Part shown: positions 18,331 to 21,312 of the stretch, in pieces
How positions within the stretch are numbered: position 1 is the stretch's first letter
Layout of the letters: the number at the start of each line of letters is the position of its first letter
NCBI RefSeq assembly: GCF_019343495.1
Contig: NZ_CP072549.1
Coordinates: forward strand, 62,001 to 126,000
Direction of reading: 5' to 3'
Length of the DNA stretch: 64,000 nucleotides
Source: Acinetobacter lwoffii
Lineage (GTDB): Bacteria; Pseudomonadota; Gammaproteobacteria; Pseudomonadales; Moraxellaceae
Notes under the pieces: model-generated
Databases searched by the model: none
Seen by the model: only the letters and a program-made list of their open reading frames with translations
Told to the model about the DNA's origin: nothing
Made by a program: the position numbers and the translations under genes

Positions 18331-21312
18331 ATGAGCGTATCGGAAATTAGACCGATTGCCATTGAGGATGAACTTAAAAGCTCATATCTCGATTATGCGA
18401 TGAGCGTGATTGTGTCACGTGCATTGCCCGATGTACGAGATGGTTTAAAACCTGTTCATCGTCGTGTGCTTTTCGCAATGCACGAATTAGGCAATGACTA
18501 TAACAAAGCTTATAAAAAGTCTGCACGTGTAGTCGGTGACGTCATCGGTAAATATCACCCGCATGGTGATTATGCCGTATACGAAACCATTGTACGTATG
18601 GCGCAAGATTTCAGCTTGCGTTACCAATTGGTTGATGGTCAAGGTAACTTCGGTTCGGTCGATGGCGATAGCGCAGCAGCCATGCGTTATACCGAAGTGC
18701 GTATGCGTAAACTGACCCACGAACTGTTAGCGGATCTTGAAAAAGATACCGTCGAGTGGGAAGACAACTACGATGGCTCTGAGCGTATTCCTCAAGTCAT
18801 GCCAACCCGTGTTCCGAACTTGTTGATTAATGGTGTCACTGGTATTGCAGTCGGTATGGCGACCAATATGGCGCCGCATAACATGACTGAAGTGGTGAAT
18901 GCGTGTCTGGCCTATGCCAATGATCCTCAAATCAGCATTGAAGGATTGATGGAACATATTTCTGGTCCGGATTTCCCGACAGGTGGCATCATTTACGGTA
19001 AATCAGGTATCGTCGATGCGTACCGTACTGGTAAGGGCCGTTTGCATATCCGTGGTAAATACCATTTCGAAGAAGATCCGAAGAATGGCCGTACCACGAT
19101 TGTCTTCACTGAAATTCCATATCAGGTCAATAAAGCAAAAACCATTGAGCGTATTGCTGAACTGGTCAAAGAGAAAAAACTCGAAGGCATTTCAGAGCTT
19201 CGTGACGAGTCTGACAAAGACGGTATGCGTATCGCGATTGACCTGAAGCGCGGTGAAAACGCCGAAGTGATCGTGAACAACCTGTTCCAGAATACGCAAC
19301 TTGAAAACTCTTTCAGCATCAATATGGTTTGTCTGGATAATGGCCAACCAAAATTGATGAACTTGAAAGACATCATTGCAGCGTTTATCCGTCACCGTCA
19401 GGAAGTGGTCACGCGTCGTACCATGTTCGAATTACGCAAAGCGCGTGAACGTGGTCATATCCTGGAAGGTTTAACCGTTGCTCTGGCGAATATTGATGCC
19501 ATCATCGAAACCATCAAGAGTTCTGCGAATCCAGCTGAAGCGCGTGAGCGTTTGCAGGCAGGTGAGTGGGCTGGTGGCGGTGTTTTGGCCTTGCTAGAAA
19601 AAGCCGGTTCAGTTTCTGTACGTCCAGATGAGATTGAAGGTGAAGATCCAAGTCGCCCATTTGGTTTGGATGGCGAGATTTATCGTCTGTCACCAACCCA
19701 AGTGAATGCGATTATGGAACTTCGCTTACACCGTTTAACTGGTCTGGAACAAGACAAGTTACATGCGGAATATAGTGAAATTCTGTCACAAATTGCTGAA
19801 CTGACTGCAATTTTGAATGACTTTAATCTGTTGATGAATGTGATTCGTGAAGAATTGGCCTTGATTCTTCAGCAGTATGGCGATGCACGTAAAACGTCGA
19901 TTGTCGAGTCACGTATCGATTTCTCTCGTGAAGATCTGATTCCTGAAGAGCAAATGGTTCTGACGGTATCGAAATCAGGTTATGCGAAAACTCAACCATT
20001 GTCTGACTACGCTGCACAGCGTCGTGGTGGCCGTGGTAAGTCTGCGACCAGCATGAAAGAAGATGATTACATTCAGCATCTGATTGTGACTTCAAGTCAT
20101 GCGACAGTACTTTGCTTTACCAACGTTGGTAAGGTCTATCGTCTGAAAGTCTATGAAGTGCCGCAAGCATCACGTGGTGCCAAAGGCCGCCCAATGGTGA
20201 ACTTGCTGCCGCTGGATGAAAACGAGACCATTACTGCGATCTTGCCTGTCATTGACGCGCCGAAGAAATTCAAAGAACGTCTGGCTGACTTCAAGGCATT
20301 TGTAAAAGTTAATGCAGCGCAGTTGCAAGCCAATGAAGTGATCAATGCTCATTTTGCCGAGCTTGAAGCTGCCCTGACTGAATCTGAAGATGGTGCGGAT
20401 GATATTTCAGATGCATTGCGTATTCAATTGAAACAGTTGGGCTTAGAGCTTTCTGCAACAGATCTTGATGATGACATCATCAATGACTTTGCTCAGCAGG
20501 CTGAAGCGGTACGTAAAAACTTCTATGTGTTTATGGCAACTGAATACGGTACGATTAAACGTGTAGAGCTTGAACAGTTCTCGAATGTCCGTTCAAACGG
20601 TTTACGTGCGATTGAGCTGAATGGTGACGATACCCTCATTGGTGTAGCGATTACCGACGGCGAACAGCAAATCATGTTGTTCTCGAACGAAGGTAAAGCC
20701 ATTCGCTTCGCAGAGACGGATGTACGTTCAATGGGCCGTTCTGCCAAAGGTGTACGCGGTATGCGCGTGACCATTGGTGCAGCTGCACAGCTAGAAGAAA
20801 ATGACGAAACTGAGATCGAGTCTGATGACGAAGATGGTTCAGATTCAGCATTGATTAGCCGTATCGTGTCATTGGTGGTGGTTCCTGAAACTGGCGAAGT
20901 ACTGTGTGCATCTGAAAATGGTTATGGTAAACGTACTCCAGTAGACGACTTCCCGACCAAGAAACGTGGCGGTAAGGGTGTGATTGCGATCAAGACCTCT
21001 GAACGTAACGGTCAATTGGTGGGTGCTGTTGGCATTGATGCGACTAAAGAGCTGATGCTAATTTCTGATGGCGGTACGCTGGTTCGTACCCGTGCATCTG
21101 AAGTGGCGCAAACTGGTCGTAATGCACAGGGTGTTCGTCTGATCCGTCTAGGTAATGAGGAATTGCTGGTCGGTGTGGTTTCAATCGAAGCTGTTGAAGA
21201 AGACGAGTTTGTTGAAGCAATTGAAGGTGCAGAATCTTTAGTGGCAGAAACAGATGTAGCAGTTGAAAATGAGCAAGTTGAAAAAGATGGTGAAAATTCA
21301 GTAGAAGAATAA
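18331..21312 (+). CDS. gyrA: DNA gyrase subunit A, with Tyr81 and an enlarged C-terminal domain
   Basis: 993 residues. Gyrase A cuts and rejoins DNA during negative supercoiling and is the main quinolone target in this genus. The N-terminal breakage-reunion domain starts IEDELKSSYLDYAMSVIVSR and has the catalytic Tyr in AMRYTEVRM near residue 120. The quinolone-resistance region reads KYHPHGDYAVYETIVRMAQ: residue 81 (E. coli 83) is Tyr (codon TAT, 18571-18573), not the usual Ser. The GyrA box RRGGRGKS is present near residue 562. Residues about 641-729, between AILPV and FYVFMATEYG, are extra compared with E. coli GyrA (875 aa). A second acidic stretch (ETEIESDDEDGSDS) and an acidic tail follow. 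GyrA, not ParC, by the GyrA box and QRDR context. Confidence 0.98.
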   Translation: MSVSEIRPIAIEDELKSSYLDYAMSVIVSRALPDVRDGLKPVHRRVLFAMHELGNDYNKAYKKSARVVGDVIGKYHPHGDYAVYETIVRMAQDFSLRYQLVDGQGNFGSVDGDSAAAMRYTEVRMRKLTHELLADLEKDTVEWEDNYDGSERIPQVMPTRVPNLLINGVTGIAVGMATNMAPHNMTEVVNACLAYANDPQISIEGLMEHISGPDFPTGGIIYGKSGIVDAYRTGKGRLHIRGKYHFEEDPKNGRTTIVFTEIPYQVNKAKTIERIAELVKEKKLEGISELRDESDKDGMRIAIDLKRGENAEVIVNNLFQNTQLENSFSINMVCLDNGQPKLMNLKDIIAAFIRHRQEVVTRRTMFELRKARERGHILEGLTVALANIDAIIETIKSSANPAEARERLQAGEWAGGGVLALLEKAGSVSVRPDEIEGEDPSRPFGLDGEIYRLSPTQVNAIMELRLHRLTGLEQDKLHAEYSEILSQIAELTAILNDFNLLMNVIREELALILQQYGDARKTSIVESRIDFSREDLIPEEQMVLTVSKSGYAKTQPLSDYAAQRRGGRGKSATSMKEDDYIQHLIVTSSHATVLCFTNVGKVYRLKVYEVPQASRGAKGRPMVNLLPLDENETITAILPVIDAPKKFKERLADFKAFVKVNAAQLQANEVINAHFAELEAALTESEDGADDISDALRIQLKQLGLELSATDLDDDIINDFAQQAEAVRKNFYVFMATEYGTIKRVELEQFSNVRSNGLRAIELNGDDTLIGVAITDGEQQIMLFSNEGKAIRFAETDVRSMGRSAKGVRGMRVTIGAAAQLEENDETEIESDDEDGSDSALISRIVSLVVVPETGEVLCASENGYGKRTPVDDFPTKKRGGKGVIAIKTSERNGQLVGAVGIDATKELMLISDGGTLVRTRASEVAQTGRNAQGVRLIRLGNEELLVGVVSIEAVEEDEFVEAIEGAESLVAETDVAVENEQVEKDGENSVEE

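What the first reader, a model, noticed from the sequence alone, without database searches (positions are those of the whole stretch)
18571..18573. GyrA Tyr81 at the quinolone-resistance hotspot
The QRDR reads HPHGDYAVYETI, with Tyr (TAT) where Acinetobacter GyrA normally has Ser81 (E. coli Ser83). Substitution of this Ser, usually to Leu but also to Tyr in enterics, is the main first-step fluoroquinolone-resistance change. One base change (TCT to TAT) could produce it. It could instead be the natural residue of this species.
Basis: partly seen in the sequence, partly recalled or inferred. Interest (0 to 1): 0.72.

Follow-up and report, generated by a model that had tools for sequence, protein, structure and literature searches.

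The report
Quinolone-resistance mutation in Acinetobacter gyrase
This bacterium, a close relative of Acinetobacter lwoffii, carries a single-base change at the best-known quinolone-resistance position of DNA gyrase; it is an ordinary, recently acquired resistance-type change in a strain that also carries a multidrug-resistance plasmid.

Summary
Tyr81 is derived, not fixed in the lineage: in its supported 11-genome clade seven genomes have Ser (TCT), two Phe, two Tyr. Across 148 sampled genus genomes codon 81 is Ser 113, Phe 12, Thr 10, Ile 6, Tyr 4, Leu 3, with at least 21 hydrophobic/polar switches. The second-step ParC Ser is changed in 17 of 25 hydrophobic-81 genomes and 0 of 64 Ser/Thr-81 genomes examined, so these behave as fluoroquinolone-resistance alleles. 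This genome is at the first step: ParC is Ser, GyrB/ParE motifs look normal, no Qnr-type gene was found. Its 250-kb second contig carries blaPER, two sul1, aac(6')-Ib, arr and aph(3')-VI. Only 1 of 4 Tyr genomes has a ParC change, and no MIC is available, so the resistance level is inferred. Tyr or Phe rather than textbook Leu fits this clade's TCT codon, from which Leu is not one base away.

The parts
18331..21312 (+). gyrA, DNA gyrase subunit A, 993 aa
   Evidence: ORF; NCBIfam NF004043/TIGR01063 over cut-off; Pfam PF00521 and six stretches of PF03989
18523..18642 (+). quinolone-resistance-determining region, residues 65-104
   Evidence: Sequence; residue limits as printed for A. baumannii GyrA in PMC11237425 (passage)
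18571..18573 (+). codon 81, TAT = Tyr, where the nearest Ser relatives have TCT; the differing base is 18572
18583..18585 (+). codon 85, Glu: the acidic anchor of the quinolone metal bridge (E. coli Asp87), unchanged
   Evidence: Glu in 136 of 148 genus genomes, Asp in 12
18688..18690 (+). codon 120, Tyr, the expected DNA-cleaving tyrosine (E. coli Tyr122; assignment recalled)
   Evidence: last residue of the 120-codon translation
20263..20514 (+). 84-aa insertion (residues 645-728) in the C-terminal beta-pinwheel; not part of the resistance change
   Evidence: alignment, PDB alignments that stop at 642 or start at 729, predicted helical

Best explanation
Tyr81 is a first-step, target-site fluoroquinolone-resistance substitution that arose by one C-to-A change (TCT to TAT, base 18572) in an Acinetobacter lwoffii-complex strain under antibiotic selection. 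Normally Ser81 and Glu85 hold, through water, the magnesium ion carried by the quinolone keto-acid while the drug sits in the gyrase-DNA break. A bulky Tyr in place of Ser removes that anchor, so the drug stabilises fewer broken-DNA complexes while gyrase still works. Shown here: position, codon, derived state, recurrence, and genus-wide association of hydrophobic residues at 81 with ParC changes. Inferred: the drug-binding effect and the selecting agent. Level: most likely reduced susceptibility to moderate resistance, because ParC is unchanged.
For: Exact position and codon. Nearest Ser genome 99.5% identical with TCT; the supported clade of 11 is Ser 7, Phe 2, Tyr 2. Hydrophobic residues in 25 of 148 genus genomes, at least 21 hydrophobic/polar switches on the tree, four changes involving Tyr. 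ParC Ser changed in 17 of 25 hydrophobic-81 versus 0 of 64 Ser/Thr-81 genomes (Fisher p 1.4e-12, not corrected for kinship; independent pairs: 6.4 same way, 0.0 opposite, 3.6 no difference, median p 0.031). Purified Salmonella gyrase with Ser83Tyr: ciprofloxacin IC50 1.219 against 0.072 ug/mL for wild type (PMC10715191, passages). In A. baumannii experimental evolution GyrA Ser81Leu comes first (about 8-fold MIC) and ParC changes later, only in the gyrA-mutant background (PMC8262867, passages). A. lwoffii passaged in ciprofloxacin acquired SNPs in gyrA among other genes; the residue is not given in the text read (PMC11237425, section 18). Bridge chemistry: PMC9917921, abstract and introduction. 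The genome carries several acquired resistance genes.
Against: No MIC is available. A single gyrA change need not reach a clinical breakpoint: an A. nosocomialis with GyrA S81L (and, by the text, ParC Ser467Gly) had ciprofloxacin MIC 0.5, scored S (PMC6446969, passages). This genome has wild-type ParC, and so have 3 of the 4 Tyr81 genomes including it, so the ParC association is weakest for Tyr itself. The kinship-corrected test is only marginal (median p 0.031, range 0.008-0.125). Other gyrA sites also change often on the tree (codon 93: 15, codon 48: 13), so the count of changes alone does not prove selection.
Confidence: 0.93

Rival explanations
1. Tyr81 is the natural, fixed residue of this species, with no drug selection behind it.
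For: The genome collections hold one genome per species, so strictly conspecific strains could not be compared. Residues other than Ser can be natural: Thr in 10 of 148, explained by 2 changes on the tree, with wild-type ParC in 9 of 9 examined. Three of 4 Tyr genomes have wild-type ParC.
Against: Four named A. lwoffii genomes at 96.1-96.6% over the aligned 7.7-9 kb read Ser, Ser, Tyr, Phe. The smallest group on the tree is window Tyr, L086 Ser, L088 Phe (support 80). The four Tyr genomes need four changes, not one. Unlike Thr, the hydrophobic residues as a class go with ParC changes.
Confidence: 0.04
2. The Tyr81 allele arrived by homologous recombination from another Acinetobacter rather than by a point mutation in this lineage.
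For: gyrA mosaics exist in the group: the other nearby Tyr genome, L007, differs from the window by 1 of 250 bases in the bin holding codon 81 and from about gyrA nucleotide 465 on shares many differences with A. pseudolwoffii L009. L007 is also the closest of the four named A. lwoffii in 15831-16580 (3 differences in 750, against 12, 17 and 12).
Against: The window is equally close to its Ser relative L086 in the bin holding codon 81 (1 of 250, the codon itself) and closer in the next (2 against 6 of 250); in 17331-18330, just upstream of gyrA, L007 is not the closest (28 differences in 1000, against 17, 25 and 35 for L005, L006 and L008, and 28 and 22 for L086 and L088).
Confidence: 0.1
3. 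A sequencing or assembly error, or a neutral substitution.
For: It is one base, and no reads were available.
Against: The locus lies in a 3.04-Mb contig of an assembly rated 100% complete and 0.1% contaminated. The same residue recurs in three other genomes. Neighbouring residues are almost invariant, so a neutral hit exactly here is unlikely.
Confidence: 0.02
4. The change was selected by a natural gyrase poison or another stress rather than by clinical or veterinary quinolones.
For: No isolation data were seen; Acinetobacter of this group also live in soil, water and animals (recalled).
Against: Co-occurring ParC Ser changes in the genus follow the published ciprofloxacin order, and the genome carries antibiotic-resistance genes of the kind seen on plasmids from patients and sewage.
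Confidence: 0.04

Closest known systems
GyrA Ser83 substitutions of E. coli/Salmonella (Ser83Tyr, Ser83Phe, Ser83Leu)
   Same: Same structural position; Tyr is a listed Salmonella resistance residue that raises the ciprofloxacin IC50 of purified gyrase (PMC10715191, passages).
   Different: Different genus; numbered 81 in Acinetobacter; no phenotype known for this isolate.
Acinetobacter baumannii GyrA Ser81Leu
   Same: Same gene and residue, first step of ciprofloxacin resistance in experimental evolution (PMC8262867, passages).
   Different: The residue is Tyr, not Leu. In the lwoffii clade the Ser codon is TCT; that A. baumannii uses TCA is recalled.
GyrA Tyr81 in other Acinetobacter genomes (A. 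lwoffii VE196-10, A. cumulans WCHAc060092, A. sichuanensis WCHAc060041)
   Same: Same TAT codon at the same position.
   Different: In the unnamed genus sample, which overlaps the named set, the four Tyr genomes need four changes on the tree, and one of them also has ParC changed to Tyr.

Membership tests
GyrA Ser83-class fluoroquinolone-resistance substitution | Change at the residue equivalent to E. coli Ser83 inside the QRDR of GyrA | tested here: met
   the equivalence 81 = 83 as in PMC8262867 (passage)
GyrA Ser83-class fluoroquinolone-resistance substitution | Derived from Ser within the lineage, recurrent in relatives | tested here: met
GyrA Ser83-class fluoroquinolone-resistance substitution | Stepwise order: ParC change only together with a GyrA change | tested here: met
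   Genus level: 17 of 25 versus 0 of 64. For Tyr alone 1 of 4; this genome itself has wild-type ParC.
GyrA Ser83-class fluoroquinolone-resistance substitution | Raised quinolone MIC and drug-insensitive gyrase | not testable with these tools
   Only by analogy with Salmonella Ser83Tyr.
Species-typical (natural) non-Ser residue | Present in all members of the species | tested here: inconclusive
   Near relatives are Ser, Tyr and Phe, which speaks against it; strictly conspecific strains were not available.
Plasmid-borne quinolone resistance (Qnr, AAC(6')-Ib-cr) | Pentapeptide-repeat protein (PF00805) in the genome | tested here: not met
   0 matches in this genome; the control rings in 9 of 14 genomes.
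Plasmid-borne quinolone resistance (Qnr, AAC(6')-Ib-cr) | Arg102 and Tyr179 in AAC(6')-Ib (positions recalled) | tested here: not met
   The one AAC(6')-Ib gene reads Trp and Asp there.

The most novel reading that the evidence does not exclude
Across Acinetobacter, the synonymous serine codon a species happens to use at gyrA position 81 decides which resistance residue it evolves: TCT/TCC species go to Phe or Tyr, TCA/TCG species to Leu, AGT/AGC species to Ile. The Tyr in this window is one instance. Observed: 20 of 25 hydrophobic codons are one base from the codon of the nearest Ser relative, against a shuffled mean of 9.1 and maximum of 17 in 20,000 shuffles, which do not correct for kinship. 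By nearest Ser relative: Tyr 4 of 4 TCY, Phe 10 of 12 TCY, Ile 6 of 6 AGY, Leu 2 of 3 TCR.
Probability: 0.75. Interest if true: 0.4.

Novelty: new member of a known kind. Interest (0 to 1): 0.27.

Why it matters
It marks the strain as one that has probably met quinolones and is one step along a known resistance path. For surveillance of non-baumannii Acinetobacter, a screen that looked only for GyrA Ser81Leu would miss the Phe, Tyr and Ile alleles that make up 22 of the 25 hydrophobic alleles in this sample.

Tried and rejected
Natural-residue reading: held unlikely because relatives are polymorphic, though strict conspecifics were not available. Qnr: none found. AAC(6')-Ib-cr: the one AAC(6')-Ib gene lacks both recalled cr residues. 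GyrB and ParE QRDR changes: the motifs look normal against recalled sequences. Acquisition of this allele from L007-like DNA: not indicated next to the codon, but L007 is closest further upstream and the shared stretch is too short to exclude it.

Papers. 'Ser81Tyr' with Acinetobacter and gyrA: 0 papers. 'S81Y': 1 paper, by its listing on Streptococcus pneumoniae topoisomerase IV. 'Ser83Tyr': 11 papers, seen as a listing, one (PMC10715191) read in passages. 'Acinetobacter lwoffii' with gyrA, ciprofloxacin, mutation: 38 papers, 25 listed, one (PMC11237425) read in passages and one section. Acinetobacter with gyrA, parC, non-baumannii, Ser81 and so on: 25 papers, 20 listed, two read in passages. 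In what I saw there was no report of Tyr81 in Acinetobacter; unlisted papers, supplements and subscription journals were not seen. Water-metal bridge: 32 papers, 10 listed, one read in its abstract and introduction. Codon channelling: one search, 62 papers, 15 listed, none opened; it may well be known. A GyrA C-terminal insertion in Acinetobacter: 51 papers, 12 listed, one opened, whose insertion passages concern GyrB.

Full report
Observation. The ORF at 18331-21312 on the + strand encodes a 993-aa protein that two GyrA equivalog models of NCBIfam recognise over cut-off. Codon 81 is TAT at 18571-18573, and the surrounding sequence is KYHPHGDYAVYETIVRMAQDFSLRYQLV.

Where the genome sits. The window is part of contig C1 (3,040,667 bases) of a 3,528,101-base, six-contig genome rated 100% complete and 0.1% contaminated. 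The closest named gyrA regions are four Acinetobacter lwoffii genomes, 96.1-96.6% identical over the aligned 7.7-9 kb around gyrA; A. pseudolwoffii is at 88%. Codon 81 in those four is TCT, TCT, TAT and TTT; in A. pseudolwoffii it is TCT. Of the 80 named relatives kept by that search (of 294 found), 68 have Ser and 12 do not: 5 Phe, 3 Tyr, 2 Thr, 1 Leu, 1 Ile.

Is it derived? In the sample of unnamed genus genomes, which overlaps the named set and is not independent of it, the nearest Ser genome (L086) is 99.5% identical over 558 nt with codon 81 left out, and reads TCT. The smallest starred clade that holds the window is L085-L095 (SH-aLRT 95): 7 have TCT, 2 TTT and 2 TAT. The window's closest trio is Tyr (window), Ser (L086) and Phe (L088), support 80. 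Among L085-L093 only residues 81 (Tyr 2, Ser 5, Phe 2) and 166 vary in the first 187. So Ser encoded by TCT is the ancestral state by the simplest reading, and one C-to-A change gives the present codon.

Genus-wide pattern. Pieces of gyrA from 148 of the 149 sampled genus genomes gave Ser 113, Phe 12, Thr 10, Ile 6, Tyr 4, Leu 3. On a quick maximum-likelihood tree made without codon 81, at least 25 changes of residue, 21 switches between hydrophobic and Ser/Thr, and 4 changes involving Tyr are needed; Thr needs 2. Other variable sites change too (codon 93: 15, codon 48: 13, codon 99: 10), so the number alone is not proof of selection. The tree is weakly resolved (41 of 144 inner branches starred).

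ParC as an internal test. In A. baumannii experimental evolution GyrA Ser81Leu appears first and ParC changes appear later, only in the background of GyrA mutations (PMC8262867, passages). If hydrophobic residues at 81 are resistance alleles, ParC Ser changes should occur only with them. I examined parC in all 25 hydrophobic-81 genomes, 55 of the 113 Ser genomes and 9 of the 10 Thr genomes (the Ser ones not drawn at random). ParC Ser is changed (Leu 13, Tyr 3, Ile 1) in 17 of 25, and in 0 of 64. Fisher p is 1.4e-12 without correction for kinship; with independent pairs on supported branches, 6.4 of 10 go the same way, none the other, 3.6 do not differ, median p 0.031, range 0.008-0.125. By residue: Phe 9 of 12, Leu 3 of 3, Ile 4 of 6, Tyr 1 of 4. 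This genome is one of the three Tyr genomes with unchanged ParC.

Other quinolone determinants in this genome. ParC is Ser. The GyrB and ParE QRDR motifs look normal against recalled sequences. No pentapeptide-repeat protein, the family of Qnr, was found. One AAC(6')-Ib gene is present, but it has Trp and Asp at the positions that I recall as Arg102 and Tyr179 in the quinolone-acetylating cr form. Efflux regulators were not examined.

Resistance background. Contig C2 (250,175 bases) carries two sul1 copies. NCBIfam places neighbouring genes over cut-off in blaPER, Sul1, AAC(6')-Ib, rifampin ARR and APH(3')-VI. The 15-kb stretch L121:5001-20000 is covered 100%, in two or three joined pieces at 99.5-99.9% identity, in 5 Acinetobacter plasmid records: two from patients, two from sewage, one of unstated source. 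A strain with this history plausibly met quinolones too; that is inference.

Mechanism. Ser83 and Asp87 of E. coli GyrA (here 81 and Glu85) hold, through water, the magnesium bound by the quinolone (PMC9917921, introduction). Purified Salmonella gyrase with Ser83Tyr has a ciprofloxacin IC50 of 1.219 against 0.072 ug/mL for wild type; Ser83Phe 0.457 and Ser83Ile 5.484 (PMC10715191, passages). A. lwoffii can gain ciprofloxacin resistance in culture with gyrA among the mutated genes; the text that I read does not name the residue (PMC11237425, passages and section 18). Against over-reading: an A. nosocomialis with GyrA S81L was scored ciprofloxacin-susceptible at 0.5 ug/mL (PMC6446969, passages). 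I therefore expect reduced susceptibility to moderate resistance, not necessarily high-level.

Why Tyr and not Leu. Tyr and Phe are one base from TCT/TCC, Leu from TCA/TCG, Ile from AGT/AGC. By nearest Ser relative: Tyr 4 of 4 TCY; Phe 10 of 12 TCY and 2 TCR; Leu 2 of 3 TCR and 1 TCY; Ile 6 of 6 AGY. In all, 20 of 25 codons are one base from the nearest Ser relative's codon, against a shuffled mean of 9.1 and maximum of 17 in 20,000 shuffles. The five misfits are L104, L142, L143, L155 and L230, whose nearest Ser relatives are distant (83.7-92.7%). All 11 genomes with a Ser relative at 95% or more fit. The nearest Ser relative is itself an imperfect guide: for Ser genomes it has the same codon class in 95 of 113. 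The shuffle does not correct for kinship. This pattern is simple genetics; I did not see it stated for this genus in the listing of one search.

Verdict. Confirmed observation and supported interpretation: a known kind of resistance substitution, whose Tyr form I did not see reported for Acinetobacter in the searches listed under Tried and rejected. Modest interest. The genus-wide GyrA/ParC association and the codon channelling are the parts a specialist might use.

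Noticed in passing
window 20263-20514 (GyrA residues 645-728): An 84-aa insertion in the GyrA C-terminal beta-pinwheel, predicted helical (helices at model residues 118-199, block pLDDT 73-92; only one of five models was good). GyrA is long (979-1022 aa, by a simple start rule) in 66 of 80 named relatives, including Alkanindiges L067, and short (898-912 aa) in 14 (L071-L084), so the insertion may have been lost in the haemolyticus/brisouii-type group; best stretches of solved gyrases stop at 642 or before, or begin at 729 or later (two C-terminal chains cover 534-642 or 539-642). An earlier count gave its length as about 92; 84 is the corrected figure.
   Followed up: partly
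L007 (A. lwoffii VE196-10) gyrA, from about nucleotide 465 of the gene onward: Mosaic-looking gyrA: lwoffii-like at the 5' end, then sharing many differences with A. pseudolwoffii (I166V, E449D, S486A, S549T), which suggests recombination inside gyrA.
   Followed up: partly
own genome contig C2 (250,175 bases), positions 60001-100000 = L121, L122: Multidrug-resistance region: two sul1 copies about 9 kb apart, blaPER, aac(6')-Ib, arr, and an aph(3')-VI gene (L121:3316-4098) lying between two identical 341-aa transposase-like ORFs (L121:2211-3236 and 4196-5221); described only.
   Followed up: partly
window 21834-26663 (-): Four-gene set just downstream of gyrA: two ABC-2 membrane proteins, a HlyD-type adaptor and an outer-membrane efflux protein. 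No ATP-binding subunit was looked for. The DNA alignments with L005, L006 and L008 run on into this set to about 24309, where those loci end.
   Followed up: no
genus sample, codon 81 = Thr (10 of 148), ParC Ser in 9 of 9 examined: Thr81 looks like a natural residue of deep branches rather than a resistance allele.
   Followed up: partly
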